NCBI GenBank assembly: GCA_023266115.1
Contig: JAHFRU010000001.1
Coordinates: 124,001 to 188,000, forward strand
DNA from: Gammaproteobacteria bacterium
Lineage (GTDB): Bacteria > Pseudomonadota > Gammaproteobacteria > VBWC01
DNA length: 64,000 bases
Reading direction: 5' to 3'
The notes beneath the pieces were generated by a model that made no database searches, was not told where the DNA came from, and saw only the letters and a program-made list of their open reading frames with translations. The number at the start of each line of letters is the position of its first letter. Positions within the stretch are counted from its first letter, which is position 1. The translations under genes were made by a program, and so were the position numbers. Of the stretch, positions 11,388-28,630 are shown piece by piece.

Positions 11388-11463
<76 letters not shown>

Positions 11464-12187: not shown

Positions 12188-12655
12188 TTATTTTCTCTTC
12201 CGCCACTCCCACGGCGGTACTCTCTGATCTTCCTGTAGTGCCCATAATCCTAACCGCTGTTCGCGCGCCAACTTTTCCAGTTGGTAAAGGTTCTCATCCT
12301 TCGCGTATTTCGGATAGACCCAGGCATGTCCATTTCTGACCATTTCGGCGTTGACGTAGATACCTCCGACGTACACCTTGCCGACAATTCGCCCATATCG
12401 GTCGGTATCCACTTGCTCCACGTTCACGTATTTGCCAAAAACCCAATCAGATAACGCCTGCTTCGATTTCTGACCGTAGGGCTGTTTCTTCTCTGGTGCG
12501 TCGATTTCGGCTAGCCGGACTTTGTACTGTTTGCGGTCCTGTAGAACTGTGATGGTGTCGCCGTCTGCTATAGATACCACTTCGCCGATAATCACTGCGG
12601 CGTGACACTGCGATGTTAGCAGCAGAGAGAAGAAGAACAGGCTAAAACGTTTCAT
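12188..12655 (-). CDS. Exported thermonuclease (staphylococcal nuclease fold)
   Basis: The 155-residue protein has a cleavable signal peptide (about residues 1-19, ending CHA-A) followed by a complete SNase domain. Visible signatures: VVSIADGDTITVL, VRLAEIDAPE (catalytic Arg and metal-binding Asp), QPYGQKSKQAL, DTDRYGRIVGKV (second catalytic Arg region) and HAWVYPKYAK. Such enzymes cut DNA and RNA with calcium. Export puts the activity in the periplasm or outside the cell. It lies five bases after the 96-aa gene and 46 bases before the lipoprotein gene, probably in one leftward transcript. Confidence 0.93.
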   Translation of the reverse strand: MKRFSLFFFSLLLTSQCHAAVIIGEVVSIADGDTITVLQDRKQYKVRLAEIDAPEKKQPYGQKSKQALSDWVFGKYVNVEQVDTDRYGRIVGKVYVGGIYVNAEMVRNGHAWVYPKYAKDENLYQLEKLAREQRLGLWALQEDQRVPPWEWRKRK

Positions 12656-12660
12656 ATGTT

Positions 12661-12951
12661 CTAATGCAGTGGGTCGGTGGTGTCGGTGTTCCCGATTGTT
12701 ACTTGATTCAGCGCAGCAATCATTTCCAGCATGCCACTCGCTAAAAGATCGGCCAGTTCTGAGCTGATTTGATCAGTTTTCGCCATGTTCTTTTGTTCGG
12801 TAGGTGGGAGCTCGCCGTACTTGAGCTTGTAGTGCGCCAGATTCAACGCCAGTAGTCGCGCGCACTCAGCCACTTTCTCCTTGGTTGACTGTTCTAGTCT
12901 TGTATCCAGCGTATTGCTAGCCTCGACAAAGTCTCGTATCTGGTTTTCCAT
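12661..12951 (-). CDS. Hypothetical protein, 96 aa
   Basis: A small, mostly helical, acidic-to-neutral protein without signal peptide or membrane segment. It has a heptad-like N-terminal half (VEASNTLDTRLEQSTKEKVAECARLLAL) and a C-terminal amphipathic helix (ELADLLASGMLEMIAALNQV). I do not recognise a family. It is the first gene of the leftward trio that ends with the exported nuclease and a lipoprotein, five bases upstream of the nuclease. A cytoplasmic partner of the nuclease is conceivable, but nothing in the sequence proves it. Confidence 0.6.
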   Translation of the reverse strand: MENQIRDFVEASNTLDTRLEQSTKEKVAECARLLALNLAHYKLKYGELPPTEQKNMAKTDQISSELADLLASGMLEMIAALNQVTIGNTDTTDPLH

Positions 12952-13045
12952 GAATCGGCTCCGGGTATATAGTTTCCAGTAGAGAGTAGCGTATCAAACC
13001 GCGCGTCTGCGTGAGCTTACGTGCTGATGATCTGGGGAGGTAATC

Positions 13046-13489
13046 ATGCAATCTCATTCCTTTCATCTAAGGCTATTATCGTTTTTTGCACTGATCCTTT
13101 TTGCCAGCACGTCCTTTGCGGGGCATACGGTTCGTGGCTATCACCGTAAGGATGGTACTTACGTCGCGCCGCATTACAGTAGAAATAAGGGTGAAAGAAC
13201 GATCAGCCGAGAAACGAATTCTGGCGCGAAAATTCATCGAAGTAGAAGTCAGGGTATAGGAGCTACTAGTGGAAAAGGCAATTCTCACGGGAATGGTCAT
13301 CGTAGCGAAGCCGCTAAAAGCGCCTTCAAGAAGTCTCACCCTTGCCCTTCCACTGGTTCGTCAAGAGGTGCTTGTCCAGGCTATGTGATAGATCACATTA
13401 CGCCTTTGAAGCGCGGAGGGGCGGACGATCCACGCAATATGCAGTGGCAAACAGACAATCAAGCGAAGCAAAAGGATAAGTGGGAATAG
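13046..13489 (+). CDS. Exported HNH endonuclease
   Basis: Starts at the ATG at 13046 behind GGGGAGGT. Residues 1-25 form a signal peptide ending in TSFAG. The mature protein has a YHRKDGTYVAPHYSRNKG segment, a low-complexity Ser/Gly/His-rich linker (residues about 60-95), and a C-terminal HNH domain: CPGYVIDHITPLKRGG, then DDPRNMQWQTDNQAKQKDKWE split across the motif, giving the paired His, the Asn and the final His/Lys region. Such exported HNH proteins are annotated widely but rarely studied. It is divergent from the nuclease trio across 94 bases, so two exported nucleases share one promoter region. Confidence 0.87.
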   Translation: MQSHSFHLRLLSFFALILFASTSFAGHTVRGYHRKDGTYVAPHYSRNKGERTISRETNSGAKIHRSRSQGIGATSGKGNSHGNGHRSEAAKSAFKKSHPCPSTGSSRGACPGYVIDHITPLKRGGADDPRNMQWQTDNQAKQKDKWE

Positions 13490-13521
13490 GTAAATAGCCC
13501 TCTTGTCGGGAGTGAACCGAA

Positions 13522-14547
13522 ATGAAAAAATATTCCCTAACGCTATTGCTGGCCGCATTGTTGTGTTTTTCTACTGTCACCATTTCGGCAGCTGTCCTTT
13601 ATTCGGAAAATTTCAGCGATGGGGTAGCGAATAACTGGCGGGAGTTAAATGGCACTTGGTCGGTCACCGGTGGGGAATATGTACAAAGCGCGTTTACCGT
13701 TGATGCATGGGACGGAATAGCGGTAGTCGATTTAAACTTTGCTCCCGACTATGTCATTGAAGTCGATATTAAGAACACGTATCAGACCGGTCAGGGTTTT
13801 CAACCTGCGTTAGTCTTTGGTGTTGAGGATTACGGGGCTAACCCGCTTCATGCCTATTCTTTCGAGTATCGGCCGACATTACAGAAGTGGGCCTTGCTGA
13901 AGTTTAACGCAACTGGGCCAGATGTTACTTACGGGCAAGAGTCTGGTACGTCGTCGCCAGTTATAGGGCAGTGGTATCACATCAAGGTTGAGGTAATTGG
14001 CCTCCAGATTAAGTGTTATGTCGATGGTGTGTTGAAGATCGATGCGCTAGTACCGGCGATTGCGTCGGGGCCGGTGGGATTAATGACAGACGAAGGCGTA
14101 TGGGTGTTCGATAATTTCTTCGTATTATCTACAGCTTCTAAACAGGTGGCTGTTGACGTTATTCCGCACCACTGTCCGAACATCCTAAACATAAAAAAGA
14201 AAGGCCCTATAACAGCGGCGATTATGGGGTCTGCCGACATTGACGTAGGGAACATCGATACCGCATCAATACGCTTGGAAGGTGTAGCGCCAAACCGTTC
14301 TAAAATTAGGGATGTGGGTACGCCCTTCGAGCCATTCATCGGAAAAACCAACGAGTATAGCTGTAACGACTGGGGTACGGATGGGTTGCTTGATCTCGAA
14401 CTTCGTTTCGATGCTCAAGCACTGGTAGACGCCATTGGCCCGGCATCGAATACCGAAGTACGCGTATTGCATCTGACTGGCGAGATGCTTGATGGCACGC
14501 CAATCGAGGGGCAGGACGTTGTAATTATCAAGTATAAAGGGAAATAG
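13522..14547 (+). CDS. Exported concanavalin-like (LamG-type) protein
   Basis: The 341-residue protein has a signal peptide (1-24, ending TISAA). Residues about 25-200 form a jelly-roll-like region with YSENFSDGVANNWRELNG, EVDIKNTYQTG and YVDGVLKIDALVPAIASGPVGLMTDE, typical of LamG/laminarin-type carbohydrate-binding domains. The C-terminal 140 residues hold a separate module (VAVDVIPHHCPNILNIKKKG, ASIRLEGVAP, EGQDVVIIKYKGK) seen at the ends of many secreted proteins from diverse bacteria. It starts 32 bases after the HNH gene and is probably co-transcribed. A surface binding role is likely; no catalytic residues are evident. Confidence 0.75.
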   Translation: MKKYSLTLLLAALLCFSTVTISAAVLYSENFSDGVANNWRELNGTWSVTGGEYVQSAFTVDAWDGIAVVDLNFAPDYVIEVDIKNTYQTGQGFQPALVFGVEDYGANPLHAYSFEYRPTLQKWALLKFNATGPDVTYGQESGTSSPVIGQWYHIKVEVIGLQIKCYVDGVLKIDALVPAIASGPVGLMTDEGVWVFDNFFVLSTASKQVAVDVIPHHCPNILNIKKKGPITAAIMGSADIDVGNIDTASIRLEGVAPNRSKIRDVGTPFEPFIGKTNEYSCNDWGTDGLLDLELRFDAQALVDAIGPASNTEVRVLHLTGEMLDGTPIEGQDVVIIKYKGK

Positions 14548-14598
14548 AAACGCGCCGACCCAGCGCGAAGATATTCCATTCCTATTCCAGTGGCTGCC

Positions 14599-15258
14599 AT
14601 GTGTGGACGCTATAACATCGTCACTGACGCGGAAGCCCTAGCGGAGTTCTTTGAGATTGTTATTTTTGAACTCCAAGACTTCCACAGCAACTATAATGCC
14701 GCGCCGACGCAATACCTCCCTGTAGTGAGACTGACGGACGCGGGGCGTGAACTGATCGCGTTGCGCTGGGGGCTGGTGCCGTTCTGGGCCAAGGATACGA
14801 AGATCGGCTACAAGACCATAAACGCCAGAAGCGAAACCATTGCTACCAAGCCCGCCTTTCGGGCTGCGTATATAAAACGGCGTTGTCTGGTTCCCGCAAG
14901 TGGCTACTTTGAGTGGAAAGTGGAAGGAGGGGCAAAGCAGCCCTATAACATCTGCCTAGAAGAACGCGGTCTACTCGCGTTCGCAGGGCTATGGGAACAT
15001 TGGGAAGGAGAGAAGGAAACGCTCGATACTTTCACAATCGTTACTACCGCCGCGAGCGACCAAGTAAAACACATTCATGACCGAATGCCGGTAATACTGT
15101 CTGAGCAAGATTGTCGATTGTGGCTTACCAGCGACGATCAAGACACACTATCAAATTTACTGATTCCGCGAGATATACCGGGGCTGACTACCTACCCAGT
15201 TAACAAGCGAGTCAGTAATGCCCGTAACAACGATCCTGAGTGTATTCAACCGGCCTGA
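14599..15258 (+). CDS. SRAP-domain abasic-site-shielding protein (YedK/HMCES type)
   Basis: SRAP proteins cross-link through Cys2 to abasic sites in single-stranded DNA. The start at 14599 gives MCGRYNI, so Cys2 is exposed once Met is removed; the longer start at 14590 would block this. Other active-site elements are visible: KTINARSET (Asn), SGYFEWK (Glu) and HIHDRMPVIL (His). Length, 219 residues, is normal. Unlike most of the cargo it has no signal peptide and must act in the cytoplasm. It follows the LamG-type gene by 51 bases. Carriage on an island with two nucleases is notable. Confidence 0.93.
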   Translation: MCGRYNIVTDAEALAEFFEIVIFELQDFHSNYNAAPTQYLPVVRLTDAGRELIALRWGLVPFWAKDTKIGYKTINARSETIATKPAFRAAYIKRRCLVPASGYFEWKVEGGAKQPYNICLEERGLLAFAGLWEHWEGEKETLDTFTIVTTAASDQVKHIHDRMPVILSEQDCRLWLTSDDQDTLSNLLIPRDIPGLTTYPVNKRVSNARNNDPECIQPA

Positions 15259-15514
15259 GGTACGGGGTACGCCGGGCAAAAATTGGACTTATGGGACTCC
15301 TAGCAATCGCCCCCCGCCTGCCGAAGACCCACCTTCCCCCTCATTTGCCCGCTTGCTCCACAGTGACCGTATTAACGGGTCAGGCACGGTATGGTCAGAT
15401 TTTGTCATGTGAATATATTTGCTGGGCGAAAGCTCCTCATTGATAGTCACGGTTCCGGGTTTGAAAATATATTCGGACGGGAGTTAGAGGATCGGCGTTC
15501 AAGGAGGACGGGTC

Positions 15515-15655
15515 ATGAGAATATTAATCGTTGCATTAATGTTGATGTTTACCAGCAGCATGGTATTAGCTCATGGTGGAGGTTGTCGCAAAGACTCACC
15601 TCCAGGACAGTGCTGCCATATGGACCATAAAACCGGCATCGTTCACTGTCACTAA
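15515..15655 (+). CDS. Small exported His/Cys-rich protein (YHYH-like), 46 aa
   Basis: A short gene with an excellent ribosome binding site (AAGGAGGACGGG at 15500-15511) before ATG 15515. The product has a signal peptide of about 19 residues (MRILIVALMLMFTSSMVLA) and a 27-residue mature peptide beginning HGGGCRKD and ending CCHMDHKTGIVHCH. The tail resembles the small secreted YHYH-type proteins whose C-terminus reads like CHNNKKTGGYHCH. Four Cys and four His residues suggest metal binding or disulfide packing. The 256 bases upstream of it (15259-15514) hold no other gene. Confidence 0.7.
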   Translation: MRILIVALMLMFTSSMVLAHGGGCRKDSPPGQCCHMDHKTGIVHCH

Positions 15656-15738
15656 GCTTGGGCATAAACAAGTTGCCGCGCTGGGCGCACTGATGCGCTC
15701 CGGTGCGGCGGTGCGTGCTAGTAGAGGTCGGGGTTCAA

Positions 15739-16110
15739 ATGTGGTGGCAACATTGGGGACATATTCTTCTAGTTATTTTTATTGGAGGTTGCGCAACGCA
15801 ACAAGCCAGGTTGCAGTGGTACAATCCAAACATTGTTAATAGCATAGCTCAACAACAGTTCAATATTGATTCTGGTCAATGTAAGTCCGTTGCGCATCAA
15901 TCAGTTCCGGATAACATTACTCGGCTCGGTCCTGCCCCTCCAAAAAATACTGGTAAATTCCATTCCGGTGTTGATTATCAAGAGCAGCAAGCTTATATAC
16001 GGTCGATAGATTTATTTAACCAACAGCAACAGGCTAGGATTGACGCAATTAACAGTGCTTACGTTGGGTGTATGTTGCAGCGTGGTTGGTCTCAAATTCT
16101 CGAACAGTAG
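15739..16110 (+). CDS. Predicted lipoprotein, 123 aa
   Basis: The ATG at 15739 gives MWWQHWGHILLVIFIGGCATQ, a lipoprotein signal with Cys18; the ORF extends upstream to 15703 without a better start. The mature protein is rich in Gln and Asn (QQQFNIDSGQ, LFNQQQQARIDAIN), with two Cys residues and a Pro-rich patch (LGPAPPKNTGKF). The pattern of GQC...AYVGCMLQRGW resembles small phage- or island-borne lipoproteins of unknown role. It lies 83 bases after the small His-rich gene and 37 bases before the next exported protein. Confidence 0.65.
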   Translation: MWWQHWGHILLVIFIGGCATQQARLQWYNPNIVNSIAQQQFNIDSGQCKSVAHQSVPDNITRLGPAPPKNTGKFHSGVDYQEQQAYIRSIDLFNQQQQARIDAINSAYVGCMLQRGWSQILEQ

Positions 16111-16147
16111 GGTCCTACCTGCTGATATTTGTTATATGGAGGATCAA

Positions 16148-16984
16148 ATGAAAGCACAAACAGTCATTCTTGTCTTTGTTGCACTATTTGGGCCCTCAGA
16201 ACTCGCTTTTGCGAAGAAACCAATCAGCCCCGGACAGGACGTGAATTGTGTTAAATGTGTCGATACCACAGATATTGCCGATGGTGCCGTTACAAACCCC
16301 AAGCTCGGTGCCGACGTCGAGACCAGAATTGGCAACATTGAGACCGGTGTTACAGATAACGCGAATGATATTTCCCAGAATACTGCCAACGTGTCCAGTA
16401 ATTCGTCGAAGATTCTGGAGAACGAGCTAGATATTATGACCCTTCGAACTGACGTCGATTCGAATACTGCTGCGATAGCGGGTATAACTCAGGGGGTCCA
16501 GGTGCTAGCGAATGGGGTAAGTATCGGGAGTTTCCTGCAAAGCCGACCCCATGTCAGTGGTAGCGGTGACTTGATTCACCAGGCACTCAGTACCGCCAAC
16601 TACGTATTTGAAGTTTATGCCCATGGGCTTGCAAGCGACGGCAATCAGGCCGGTGACCTTACCACCTTGACGCTTTGGTATGAGGATGTGGGATGCTCGG
16701 GCCCCGCTTACGTAAGGATTCAAAATGAACTACGAAATCTCAATATGTCCGAGCAACAAGGTGGCGTATTTCGCGTCGCGACCGCATCTGGTTCCGTAGG
16801 TAATTACTATGTTCCAGCCGGTTCTCAGTCCACGATACGATCTTTTATCGCCGCCAATGGAGGAGAAGGCTGTGCCCCTAATTCTGTAAATAACGTGGAG
16901 TCGGTAAGGGTGTTCGCGAACGATTCCGCCATCACTGGTGTCCATAATGTGCGCTACGCTGCGCCAATTACGCTGGGGCGGTAA
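16148..16984 (+). CDS. Exported coiled-coil protein, 278 aa
   Basis: ATG 16148 follows TGGAGGATCAA, a strong ribosome site. Residues 1-22 are a signal peptide (ending AFA). Then comes CVKCVDTTDIADGAVTNPKL, a motif common before trimeric stalks of fibre-like proteins, and a heptad coiled coil (about residues 60-120: IGNIETGVTDNANDISQNT, LENELDIMTLRTDVDSNTA). The C-terminal 150 residues form a beta-rich domain with two Cys residues. It may be a trimeric surface stalk-and-head protein. No enzyme motif. Last gene of the cargo. Confidence 0.65.
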   Translation: MKAQTVILVFVALFGPSELAFAKKPISPGQDVNCVKCVDTTDIADGAVTNPKLGADVETRIGNIETGVTDNANDISQNTANVSSNSSKILENELDIMTLRTDVDSNTAAIAGITQGVQVLANGVSIGSFLQSRPHVSGSGDLIHQALSTANYVFEVYAHGLASDGNQAGDLTTLTLWYEDVGCSGPAYVRIQNELRNLNMSEQQGGVFRVATASGSVGNYYVPAGSQSTIRSFIAANGGEGCAPNSVNNVESVRVFANDSAITGVHNVRYAAPITLGR

Positions 16985-17617: not shown

Positions 17618-18097
17618 TCACTCGATCCGCTCGCCTTCGACCGTTTTACCGGCCAGAGCTTGAAACTGATCTTGCAACTTCTTGAGTTCGTCCTTGCTGT
17701 TGCCGCTTATGCTCGTCGGCTGATTCCGGCCAAGGGCGCGCTTGTCAAAGCTGATCGCTTGCACAAGAGCTAAATCTCTAGCACCGACTGGCTTCCGCTT
17801 AAGGGCGCCGTCCTTGCTCACCAAGTAGTCCCCATCGGTAAGCCGGTCCTTGATTTGTTCCCCGGCCAAATGGATATTTTCGGTAAGCATCGCGTCCAGT
17901 TCGTCGGCTTTTTCGTCGCGGATTCTCGTTAACAAAGTTTCCCACCATTCGCATTTTCGCCAGCCGTATAAAGTTGATACCGGGATATTTACCAGTTCTG
18001 CAACCCGCGTCATTACCCCGGTTGTGGCATAGGCAGCGATCGCCTCTCGGCGCTTCTCGTCGGAATAGAGGCTGGTGTGTGATTCGATTGCGTCCAT
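17618..18097 (-). CDS. Terminase small-subunit-like HTH protein
   Basis: 159 residues. The N-terminal third is a helix-turn-helix (EKRREAIAAYATTGVMTRVAE, then LVNIPVSTLYGWRKCEWW), followed by a helical region (KADELDAMLTENIHLAGEQI) and a short strand-rich part (GDYLVSKDGALKRKPVGARD). This order is that of phage small terminase subunits, which choose the packaging site; phage satellites use their own copy to redirect packaging. A transposase-like or other HTH regulator is the alternative. The ATG at 18097 has GAGGGATG upstream. It is last in the leftward core, 13 bases after the ribbon-helix-helix-like gene. Confidence 0.55.
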   Translation of the reverse strand: MDAIESHTSLYSDEKRREAIAAYATTGVMTRVAELVNIPVSTLYGWRKCEWWETLLTRIRDEKADELDAMLTENIHLAGEQIKDRLTDGDYLVSKDGALKRKPVGARDLALVQAISFDKRALGRNQPTSISGNSKDELKKLQDQFQALAGKTVEGERIE

Positions 18098-18110
18098 CAC
18101 TCATCCCTCT

Positions 18111-18329
18111 TTACGATGTCGGTAAATTCCGGTCACGCGCCCACTCTGAAACAATACGATTCAAGATCGATGAGGCATCGTGACCAACATATGGCCGCCT
18201 GAGTTGGTCGATGATTGTTCCGGCCTGAGTGCCTACGTAGTAATCCAGCCGCCGTTTACCTTCACGCCGTCGCCGTTGGCGCATGCGGGCCATGTATCGC
18301 TGCCGCTCCATCCAGTGGTGATCTTCCAT
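18111..18329 (-). CDS. Small ribbon-helix-helix-like DNA-binding protein
   Basis: 72 residues starting at 18329 behind TAGGAGG; the ORF continues upstream to 18425 but without a better start. The N-terminal third is strongly basic (ARMRQRRRREGKRRLD). Then RLDYYVGTQAGTIIDQLRR and a helix DASSILNRIVSEWARD, which fit a beta strand plus two helices as in Arc/MetJ-type repressors. The gene stands directly downstream of an array of five palindromes; one lies at its ribosome site. It is therefore a natural candidate for the protein that binds them and controls its own transcription. Confidence 0.6.
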   Translation of the reverse strand: MEDHHWMERQRYMARMRQRRRREGKRRLDYYVGTQAGTIIDQLRRPYVGHDASSILNRIVSEWARDRNLPTS

Positions 18330-18345: not shown

Positions 18346-18503
18346 ATACGTACTGCGTATGGTATATCTAAGAAGGTACACGGTATGCGTGTCAATTCAA
18401 TAGCAGAAAATGGCCTGATAAACACGGTATGCGTGTCAAAGAGCTTGGCGTTGGCCCGTAATTAACACGGTATGCGTGCTAGATTGACACGGTAGGCGTG
18501 TTA
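18346..18503. promoter_or_regulatory. Array of five phased palindromic sites
   Basis: Sites with the form ACACG-N5-CGTGT: 18378-18392 and 18422-18436 (perfect arms), 18465-18479 (last base changed), 18487-18501 (perfect arms, spacer GTAGG), plus ATACG-N5-CGTAT at 18346-18360 with symmetric changes. Start-to-start distances are 32, 44, 43 and 22 bp, all close to multiples of a helical turn. They span the control region of the 72-aa gene and the 3' end of the 153-aa gene. Two copies end in TGTCAA, giving leftward TTGACA hexamers, though no well-spaced leftward -10 is obvious. They are operators or replication iterons. Confidence 0.75.
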
Positions 18504-18897
18504 CCAAATTATTTCTCCATCGGTTGGACGGCACAGTGGTTGGTGGTACGTCAAGCTTGCCGTCGCACTCATCGATGCCAAGCCAGGTCAGCGCAAAGAG
18601 ATTGGCCTTGTGTCTTCCGCCTTGGCGCGTGCGGATAATCCACCCGCTAGATTCCAATTCGGTTTGTGCTCTGTTCAATGTGTCCCGAGACTTCCATCCA
18701 CGTTTCTTCATCCACCCCCACGCGGCGCAGAGGTCGCCATTGTTGCTGCCCCTAAACTGGCTACCCAGATCGACCAAGAGCTTGACCGCGATGGAGCTTA
18801 ATTGGGCGTACTCCTCGCTTTCGAGTATGTGTTTCGGGAGTCGAAGAAACGGGGCGCTATCTTTTCTGCCCTTTGTTTTTTGCCGTGTTCGTGCCAT
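18436..18897 (-). CDS. HTH protein, possible replication initiator
   Basis: 153 residues. After a basic N-terminus (MARTRQKTKGRKD) it has APFLRLPKHILESEEYAQLS, a winged-helix-like region (VKLLVDLGSQFRGSNNGD, AAWGWMKKRGWKSRDTLNRA) and ELESSGWIIRTRQGGRHKAN. Proteins of this type occur in phages and integrative elements near their replication region. Placement next to an iteron-like array supports an initiator or ori-binding role; a plain transcription regulator is the alternative. The last 20 or so codons overlap two and a half palindromes, so coding and control sequences are superimposed. No helicase or primase motif is present. Confidence 0.6.
   Translation of the reverse strand: MARTRQKTKGRKDSAPFLRLPKHILESEEYAQLSSIAVKLLVDLGSQFRGSNNGDLCAAWGWMKKRGWKSRDTLNRAQTELESSGWIIRTRQGGRHKANLFALTWLGIDECDGKLDVPPTTVPSNRWRNNLVTRLPCQSSTHTVLITGQRQAL
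18484..18512 (+). promoter_or_regulatory. Rightward promoter candidate in the palindrome array
   Basis: TTGACA at 18484-18489, a 17-base spacer, and AATTAT at 18507-18512 (four of six matches to TATAAT). It overlaps the last palindrome (18487-18501), so a protein bound there would block it. A transcript would start near 18519 and run antisense to the 153-aa gene towards the rightward terminator at 18937-18974. Confidence 0.5.
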
Positions 18898-18932
18898 AAT
18901 CCCTCTGCAATAGTACGAATAGACGTGAACGT

Positions 18933-19142
18933 TTAGGGCCGGGAATCTTCATTGGTTTCCGGCCTTTTTCTTTTGCGCAGCGATTGGTAAAGGCACCACG
19001 CTTCTATTCGGTCGATGTGGGCCAGATCAGGTTCAACACCCAATTCCGGGTAACGGTTGACCAATTCCTCCAGCTCGATAAGCCACTCAAATGACAGAAC
19101 CTCGATAGCTGGCGGATTTCCGCAGTGTTCGCAGCGCCTCAT
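18933..19142 (-). CDS. Small zinc-ribbon-like protein, 69 aa
   Basis: Begins MRRCEHCGNPP, a CxxC knuckle, followed by a helical acidic region (LIELEELVNRYPEL) and a basic C-terminus (SLRKRKRPE). Its ATG overlaps the stop of the 98-aa gene (ATGA), so the two are translationally coupled. The last dozen codons lie in the stem and T-run of the rightward terminator. I recognise no named family; small CxxC proteins of this size are common in phages and satellites. Confidence 0.55.
   Translation of the reverse strand: MRRCEHCGNPPAIEVLSFEWLIELEELVNRYPELGVEPDLAHIDRIEAWCLYQSLRKRKRPETNEDSRP
18937..18974 (+). terminator. Rightward intrinsic terminator
   Basis: Stem GGCCGGGAA (18937-18945) pairs with TTTCCGGCC (18956-18964) with one G-U pair and a 10-base loop, followed by TTTTTCTTTT (18965-18974). 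On the leftward strand no T-run follows, so it ends rightward transcription only. All island core genes are leftward; it also lies inside the 3' end of the 69-aa gene. Confidence 0.75.
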
Positions 19143-20428: not shown

Positions 20429-20524
20429 TGTTGGCCTCCTTCAGGGCTCCCTTCATGCTGAAACCAAGCCAAACCGGTGAAGGTTCCGGCGGTTCGGGAG
20501 CTACCCTAGGCTTGGTGTAAACAG

Positions 20525-21902: not shown

Positions 21903-21949
21903 GATTCGTAATCAGTAGGTCGGAGGTTCGATTCCTCTCTCCGGCACCA
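21903..21949 (+). repeat. attR (tRNA-Thr 3' half copy)
   Basis: Right copy of the 47-bp direct repeat, identical to 11417-11463. It is not a functional tRNA gene, because the 5' half is missing. It lies 184 bases upstream of the integrase start codon and marks the right border of the island; the ampD gene begins 108 bases further on. Confidence 0.92.
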
Positions 21950-28056: not shown

Positions 28057-28182
28057 TTTTTTCTTCCTTGCCCAGCAGGCACACACCCGTGCCGAATGAA
28101 AAACTGAGTAGCGCGGAAGGAAGACAAAGGTCAGGAAGTGAATGATTCCTGCCGTGTCGCCCGCCGCAACACTCGCCGTCGC

Positions 28183-28385
28183 TGTGTCAGGCCGGTCTCC
28201 GGGCTCACGAGCAGGGATCACTCCCCTGGTTGGCGCCTTCCCGTGCCTATGGCACAGTGGCATTTCGCCAGCCAGTATCTCGTCTACCGTTGCGGGGGCA
28301 GCGTCGGGTTTGCCAGTGTTGAATCACTGGCGCACCGACTTCCCGTTTCATTCCGTGGACGGGGGTATGTCCGTGGAACACCTGA
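28183..28385 (-). ncRNA. Cobalamin riboswitch
   Basis: Read leftward, the region contains GGGAAGTCGGTG, CGCTGCCCCCGCAACGGT, GCCACTGTGCC and, near the end, the B12 box as AGCCCGGAGACCGGC (28192-28206). Order and spacing are those of the cobalamin riboswitch family. It ends about 130 bases before the btuB start, so it should switch off btuB-tonB-pduO when adenosylcobalamin is plentiful. Exact ends are approximate. The remaining bases of 28057-28630 hold no gene. Confidence 0.93.
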
Positions 28386-28630
28386 CACGCATGGTCGTAA
28401 ACGGGGGTGAATCTACGGGCATGGCGCCGGCCGTGTCAAGGCCGGAAATTTTTCTCTTGACGAAGCAGTGGGTTGCTGTGATCCGCAGACAGCCGAAGAA
28501 CTATTTCCCATGTAACTTTAATTTCACCTACCATGGAACGCGTACCAAGCCTCCGCGCCGTCGCTGTTCAGACGACGCACAGTTAAGCAGCGATAAACAA
28601 AGCGACATATCCGGGAGAGCGCACTTTCTG

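What the first reader, a model, noticed from the sequence alone, without database searches (positions are those of the whole stretch)
18484..18974. Predicted antisense RNA across the island's replication-like gene
All island core genes are leftward, yet a strong rightward terminator (stem 18937-18964, T-run to 18974) lies in this region. The only good rightward promoter I can see upstream is TTGACA-17-AATTAT at 18484-18512, inside the last palindrome of an operator array. Together they frame a transcript of about 450 bases fully antisense to the 153-aa initiator-like gene (18436-18897). Antisense RNAs control initiators in plasmids; here the promoter would also be blocked by whatever binds the palindromes, giving a two-layer switch.
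Basis: partly seen in the sequence, partly recalled or inferred. Interest (0 to 1): 0.75.

Follow-up and report, generated by a model that had tools for sequence, protein, structure and literature searches.

The report
Lambda-like origin with short antisense RNA
A 10.5-kb mobile DNA island carries a replication origin built like phage lambda's (four short repeats at the end of the initiator gene plus an AT-rich box), and just upstream of that gene a predicted roughly 66-base RNA made in the opposite direction, placed as in lambda's OOP RNA; a fair share of related islands in other bacteria show a similar layout.

Summary
The sequence features are real: the rightward terminator (18937-18964) is the strongest intrinsic terminator in the 64 kb, and TTGACA-17-AATTAT (18484-18512) is the best rightward promoter match in its surroundings. 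The interpretation needs changing in two ways. (1) The 'operator array' is almost certainly the island's replication origin: four iterons plus an AT-rich box (18360-18376). In 46 of 64 homologous loci an array and AT box lie at the 3' end of the same initiator gene, with near-constant spacing but differing iteron sequences (38 distinct units). The TTGACA is an iteron half-site; the iteron promoter does not recur. (2) A second rightward promoter was missed: TG-c-CATAAT (18892-18900) over the initiator's start codon, 70 nt before the terminator. It predicts a ~66-nt RNA (~18907-18973) antisense to the 3' end of the upstream 69-aa gene, not to the initiator. Phage lambda's pO/tO has the same extended -10 at the same place. 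In 81 related loci antisense terminators cluster upstream of the initiator (18 antisense, 1 sense), with promoters 40-85 nt before them. Best reading: a lambda OOP-like antisense unit tuning an iteron origin. Untested by RNA data; most homologs lack a detectable unit.

The parts
18436..18897 (-). 153-aa O-like (winged-helix) replication initiator gene
18462..18482 (.). iteron 2 (core ACACGGTATGCGTGCTAG at 18465-18482)
18419..18439 (.). iteron 3, spans the initiator stop codon
18375..18395 (.). iteron 4, abuts the AT-rich box
18360..18376 (-). conserved AT-rich origin box CCTTCTTAGATATACCA (family consensus about CCTTTATATATCTACCA), candidate DNA-unwinding element
18873..18900 (+). pO-like promoter TTGTTT-16-CATAAT with extended -10 TG at 18892-18893; -10 overlaps the initiator start codon
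18907..18973 (+). predicted ~66-nt OOP-like antisense RNA (ends inferred, not mapped)
18937..18974 (+). tO-like intrinsic terminator (stem 18937-18964, T-run to 18974), overlapping the 3' codons of the 69-aa gene
18933..19142 (-). 69-aa gene upstream of the initiator; its 3' end is the antisense target (positional counterpart of lambda cII)

Best explanation
The region is a lambda-type replication module of an integrated island. The 153-aa O-like protein binds four iterons spread over the last part of its own gene and beyond its stop codon, and opens the adjacent AT-rich box to start replication. Opposite to the leftward operon, an extended -10 promoter over the initiator's start codon (pO-like) makes a ~66-nt RNA that stops at the strong terminator in the 3' end of the 69-aa gene (tO-like). 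As in lambda, this unit would act (i) as antisense RNA on the 69-aa gene's end of the operon mRNA, probably through RNase III, and (ii) by convergent transcription, limiting how much operon transcription reaches initiator and origin. Shown here: array geometry, AT box, terminator strength, promoter match, recurrence in homologs, same register as lambda. Inferred: that the promoter fires, iteron binding by the 153-aa protein, and the regulatory effect.
For: Origin: iterons at near-fixed distances from a conserved AT-rich box in 46 of 64 loci; 32 have exactly four, median centres -122/-99.5/-52.5/-10, 38 distinct iteron units. Antisense unit: strongest terminator of the window. In the 400 nt upstream of the initiator, antisense terminators with d>0 are 0.56 per kb against 0.14 per kb upstream of other sense ORFs in the same loci (P about 7e-6 without this window), 18 antisense to 1 sense; with d>15, 0.28 against 0.09 per kb (P about 0.01). 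Promoters 40-85 nt before the strong ones: mean score 7.0 against 2.57 +/- 0.83 in shuffles, 0 of 1000, this window excluded; other distances show no excess. Joint promoter+terminator units at score 8 or more: 14 of 81 antisense, 0 of 81 sense, 2% of control windows. Positive control: the same scan on lambda finds pO (TG-t-CATAAT, -10 at +2 of the O start codon) and tO at -80; here TG-c-CATAAT at +2 and terminator at -67. Of 132 ATG ORFs in the window, this is the only one with such an antisense -10. Lambda biology: PMC3985674.
Against: No RNA data. The -35 is poor (TTGTTT, 3 of 6). The RNA sequence is not conserved (median pairwise identity 53%, unrelated level). Most homologs (about 60 of 81) show no detectable unit, including several near ones (L005, L006, L008, L011). 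In most positive loci the unit lies about 90-290 nt upstream of the start codon rather than on it, and in five weaker ones (L042, L085, L086, L090, L092) the T-run coincides with the ATGAAAA-type start of a small ORF. The terminator score was trained on E. coli. Enrichment of the strongest terminators alone is modest (P about 0.01).
Confidence: 0.6

Rival explanations
1. One reading: a ~455-nt RNA from the iteron promoter (18484-18512) runs antisense through most of the initiator gene to the same terminator, and is shut off when the palindromes are occupied.
For: Best rightward promoter match in 10.0-22.5 kb, 10 of 12; weaker matches at the same place in two homologs with the same iteron family, L008 (TTGACA-16-GATTTT) and L022 (GTGACA-17-AATTTT). 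It could use the same terminator as the short RNA, so both may exist.
Against: TTGACA is the iteron half-site (TTGACACG-N5-CGTGTCAA), present because the iteron is; the -10 has only 4 of 6. Across 46 loci antisense promoters in the arrays are no better than controls; in loci with antisense terminators the promoter signal lies 40-85 nt before the terminator and not further.
Confidence: 0.2
2. The terminator is only a roadblock: it stops stray rightward transcription (read-through from the rightward cargo genes or the origin) from entering the leftward operon, with no dedicated antisense RNA.
For: Cargo genes at 13046-16984 run rightward; a terminator can act without a nearby promoter; L079 has a strong antisense terminator with no promoter before it.
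Against: Promoters are strongly enriched at 40-85 nt before such terminators in other loci, and this window has one in lambda's register.
Confidence: 0.2
3. The palindromes are operators of a repressor (for instance the basic 72-aa ribbon-helix-helix-like protein encoded just downstream, 18111-18329), not origin iterons.
For: Palindromic, lies between the initiator gene and a small basic protein gene, contains TTGACA half-sites.
Against: The 72-aa protein has no detectable relative in the homologous loci, while array geometry and AT box stay with the initiator gene in dozens of loci with many iteron sequences.
Confidence: 0.06
4. The rightward transcript encodes a protein (a 129-aa TTG-start ORF, 18524-18913, lies between iteron promoter and terminator).
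For: Frame is open for 129 codons.
Against: The same antisense frame is open in only 7 of 79 homologs, mean 2.8 stops.
Confidence: 0.02

Closest known systems
Bacteriophage lambda OOP RNA unit (pO promoter, tO terminator)
   Same: Antisense to the replication operon; -10 is TG-n-CATAAT at +2 of the initiator start codon in both; terminator at -80 (lambda) or -67 (here), near the 3' end of the gene before the initiator (PMC3985674).
   Different: RNA sequence unrelated; upstream gene is a 69-aa protein, not cII; weaker -35; no experiment.
Lambda-type origin (ori-lambda with O protein)
   Same: Four short imperfect palindromes overlapping the initiator gene, AT-rich stretch beside them, O-like initiator.
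   Different: Iterons are at and beyond the 3' end of a half-length gene, wider spacing (22, 43, 44 bp against 20, 24, 23 in lambda), and a sequence-conserved AT box; no counterpart of the O C-terminal half and no P gene recognised in the core.
PICI (phage-inducible chromosomal island) replicons, SaPI and Gram-negative types
   Same: Small integrase/AlpA-type island with the origin just 3' of the initiator gene (PMC6092414).
   Different: PICI origins are described as two iteron sets flanking the AT-rich region; here all four iterons lie on one side, and there is no pri-rep fusion.
Plasmid antisense control of initiators (CopA, RNAI types; from general knowledge)
   Same: Antisense transcript next to an initiator gene.
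   Different: Predicted RNA targets the upstream gene's 3' end, not the initiator leader, and starts at the initiator's ribosome-binding site.
RepA_N plasmid initiators (RepA N-terminal domain, 4pql/4pt7/5kbj)
   Same: Best, weak, sequence and fold matches among solved structures.
   Different: Only the winged-helix domain; E about 0.01, low TM-score.

Membership tests
Lambda OOP-type antisense unit | Promoter opposite to the initiator gene with -10 at or beside its start codon | tested here: met
   TG-c-CATAAT at +2, as in lambda; -35 weak
Lambda OOP-type antisense unit | Intrinsic terminator within ~100 nt, at the 3' end of the preceding gene | tested here: met
   stem ends at -67, overlaps last codons of the 69-aa gene, d 35.5
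Lambda OOP-type antisense unit | Short RNA is made and pairs with the upstream gene's mRNA | not testable with these tools
   needs RNA mapping
Lambda OOP-type antisense unit | Sequence relationship to lambda oop | tested here: not met
   58% global identity, like unrelated RNAs; so 'works like', not shown to be homologous
Lambda-type iteron origin | About four iterons overlapping the initiator gene | tested here: met
Lambda-type iteron origin | AT-rich element beside the iterons | tested here: met
   CCTTCTTAGATATACCA, conserved
Lambda-type iteron origin | O-family initiator | tested here: inconclusive
   window protein matches O-like and related PHROGs only at E 0.003-0.015; 9 of 20 scanned family members match phrog_18020 O-like, best 2e-6
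Lambda-type iteron origin | Initiator binds the iterons and drives replication | not testable with these tools
   needs EMSA and a replication assay
PICI | Origin with two iteron sets flanking an AT-rich region | tested here: not met
   no copy of the 21-mer on the far side of the AT box within 3 mismatches
PICI | Induction and packaging by a helper phage | not testable with these tools
   needs experiment
Plasmid CopA/RNAI-type initiator antisense control | Antisense RNA complementary to the initiator leader or primer | tested here: not met

The most novel reading that the evidence does not exclude
A widespread family of small integrative islands (the O-like initiator was found in about 6% of the sampled Gammaproteobacteria species) shares an undescribed origin design: initiator gene, four iterons at fixed spacing whose sequence changes freely between islands, and a near-invariant AT box. 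A sizeable minority independently carry an OOP-like antisense RNA unit upstream of the initiator, with unrelated sequences, implying repeated selection for a convergent promoter-terminator pair at iteron origins.
Probability: 0.4. Interest if true: 0.68.

Novelty: new variant of a known kind. Interest (0 to 1): 0.52.

Why it matters
In lambda the role of pO/OOP in replication is still debated; Olszewski et al. 2014 (PMC3985674) argue that convergent transcription itself tunes the origin. If the same promoter-terminator arrangement recurs, with unrelated RNA sequences, beside iteron origins of unrelated islands, that favours selection on convergent transcription at the origin over any particular RNA sequence. 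It also gives a recognisable origin signature for finding and typing these islands, and many natural iteron/initiator pairs for studying specificity.

Tried and rejected
Operator-array reading: rejected because geometry and AT box track the initiator gene across loci while the iteron sequence varies and the 72-aa neighbour does not co-occur. Conservation of the iteron promoter: none beyond chance. Protein-coding antisense ORF: not conserved. Terminator as a dispersed genomic repeat: single copy in the genome. Known RNA family: no Rfam match over this site or, at gathering threshold, over the antisense units of 13 homologous loci; only int-alpA (RF02996), tRNA and cobalamin riboswitch in the window. 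Close relatives of the island: none in 94 relatives, viral contigs or plasmid/phage records, so conservation at nucleotide level and covariation could not be tested. The first automatic motif placement was wrong in a few loci (L005, L020, L021, L024) and was corrected. The direct pattern search for the AT box in viral contigs gave three further loci that were not studied.

Full report
What was claimed.

Observation. The terminator is real and outstanding: with a d'Aubenton-Carafa-type score it ranks first in the 64-kb window (35.5; next 19.9; only five sites above zero) and it is single-copy in the genome. The promoter match is present (10 of 12) and is the best rightward site in 10.0-22.5 kb by weight matrix. 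The island is bounded by a 47-bp duplication of the tRNA-Thr 3' end (11417-11463 and 21903-21949); its core (integrase, 222 aa, AlpA-type, 98 aa, 69 aa, 153 aa, 72 aa, 160 aa) is leftward and its cargo largely rightward.

The array is an origin. Homologs of the 153-aa protein were collected from phage and plasmid records, viral contigs and genomes. Most carry an array of about four iterons at the 3' end of this gene, followed directly by an AT-rich box, CCTTCTTAGATATACCA here and roughly CCTTTATATATCTACCA across the family. By an automatic scan both are convincing in 46 of 64 loci; 32 of these have exactly four copies, with median centres at -122, -99.5, -52.5 and -10 from the box. The iteron sequences differ between loci (38 distinct best units), as expected when initiator and iterons change together. 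Shuffled arrays score 8.4 on average (13 at most), against 15-29 in the accepted loci. This is the anatomy of an iteron origin with an unwinding element; in lambda four iterons lie inside gene O. The TTGACA used as the -35 is the iteron half-site. Profile matches (PHROGs O-like and helicase-loader families) and a fold model (winged helix; best though weak PDB matches are RepA N-terminal domains) agree with a replication initiator.

The iteron promoter does not recur. In the 46 loci the best antisense promoter in the array is distributed as in control windows. L008 and L022, which share the iteron family, have weaker matches at the same place. L005 and L011, which keep the 69-aa neighbour, lack the terminator: it sits in a C-terminal extension of the 69-aa protein seen only here.

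But antisense terminators upstream of the initiator do recur. Binning terminators along 46 loci showed a peak of antisense-oriented ones in the 400 nt before the initiator (10, against none in the two neighbouring upstream bins). With 82 loci and a gene-matched control (81 loci, one near-duplicate dropped), the density is 0.56 per kb against 0.14 per kb upstream of other sense ORFs in the same loci (P about 7e-6 without this window), and 18 antisense against 1 sense; for strong ones 0.28 against 0.09 per kb (P about 0.01). Their sequences are unrelated. A sigma-70-like promoter tends to lie 40-85 nt before them: mean best score 7.2 against 2.0-3.4 at all other distances and 7.0 against 2.57 +/- 0.83 in shuffles for the strong ones without this window, 0 of 1000. 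Joint units of score 8 or more occur in 14 of 81 loci on the antisense strand, 0 of 81 on the sense strand, and in 2% of control windows.

The lambda parallel. In this window the promoter at that distance is TTGTTT-16-TGc-CATAAT (18873-18900), its -10 overlapping the initiator's start codon; it is the only one of 132 ATG ORFs in the window with such an antisense -10. Run on phage lambda as a positive control, the same scan returns pO as the best antisense promoter (TTGAGT-17-TGt-CATAAT, -10 at the same +2 position over the O start codon) and tO as the only strong terminator, at -80 against -67 here. Lambda pO makes the short OOP RNA, antisense to the cII transcript; loss of pO raises transcription into the origin and impairs lambda replication (PMC3985674). 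By analogy the island would make a ~66-nt RNA (about 18907-18973) covering the initiator-proximal intergenic stretch and the last codons of the 69-aa gene.

What is shown and what is inferred. Shown by sequence: array geometry, AT box, terminator, promoter match, recurrence, lambda register. Inferred: promoter activity, RNA ends, target, regulation. Caveats: most homologs have no detectable unit; in five weaker positives the T-run coincides with the ATGAAAA-type start of a small ORF; in most other positives the unit lies 90-290 nt upstream rather than at the start codon; a simple roadblock terminator remains possible. The promoter and terminator scans were my own, developed while looking at these loci, so the P values are descriptive; the tests that leave this window out, the sense strand, and the lambda control are the safeguards. 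The longer RNA from the iteron promoter is not excluded and would use the same terminator.

Verdict. A lambda-like iteron origin (confidence about 0.9) with a probable OOP-like antisense unit (about 0.6). New variant of a known kind. In seven library searches no description of OOP-like units in satellite islands turned up, but the library holds only openly licensed papers.

Noticed in passing
11417-11463 and 21903-21949: 47-bp direct repeat of the tRNA-Thr(CGT) 3' end: attL and attR of a 10.5-kb integrated island.
   Followed up: yes
20449-20516 (-): int-alpA RNA (RF02996), a ~68-nt candidate sRNA between the integrase and the next core gene; also present in homologous loci L024 (2715-2785) and L068 (99-167).
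   Followed up: partly
18111-18329 (-): 72-aa very basic, ribbon-helix-helix-like protein (by inspection) just downstream of the origin, with no relative in the homologous loci.
   Followed up: partly
17618-18100 (-): 160-aa protein with an N-terminal helix-turn-helix and weak similarity to terminase small subunits; possible packaging or regulatory gene of a satellite.
   Followed up: no
12188-15258: Island cargo includes a thermonuclease-like secreted protein (12188-12655 -), an HNH-type protein (13046-13489 +) and a SRAP/YedK-like protein (14590-15258 +), by inspection of the translations only.
   Followed up: no
28173-28400 (-): Cobalamin riboswitch upstream of a TonB-dependent BtuB-like receptor gene, outside the island.
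   Followed up: no
L008 7948-8430: Initiator gene of the Thiohalobacter island appears frameshifted (two tblastn pieces) although its origin array is intact.
   Followed up: no
L026 2632-2826: C4 antisense RNA with its a1/b1 targets and an isrK match (Rfam) upstream of the initiator in a Pseudomonas-type island: a second kind of antisense control in the same family.
   Followed up: no
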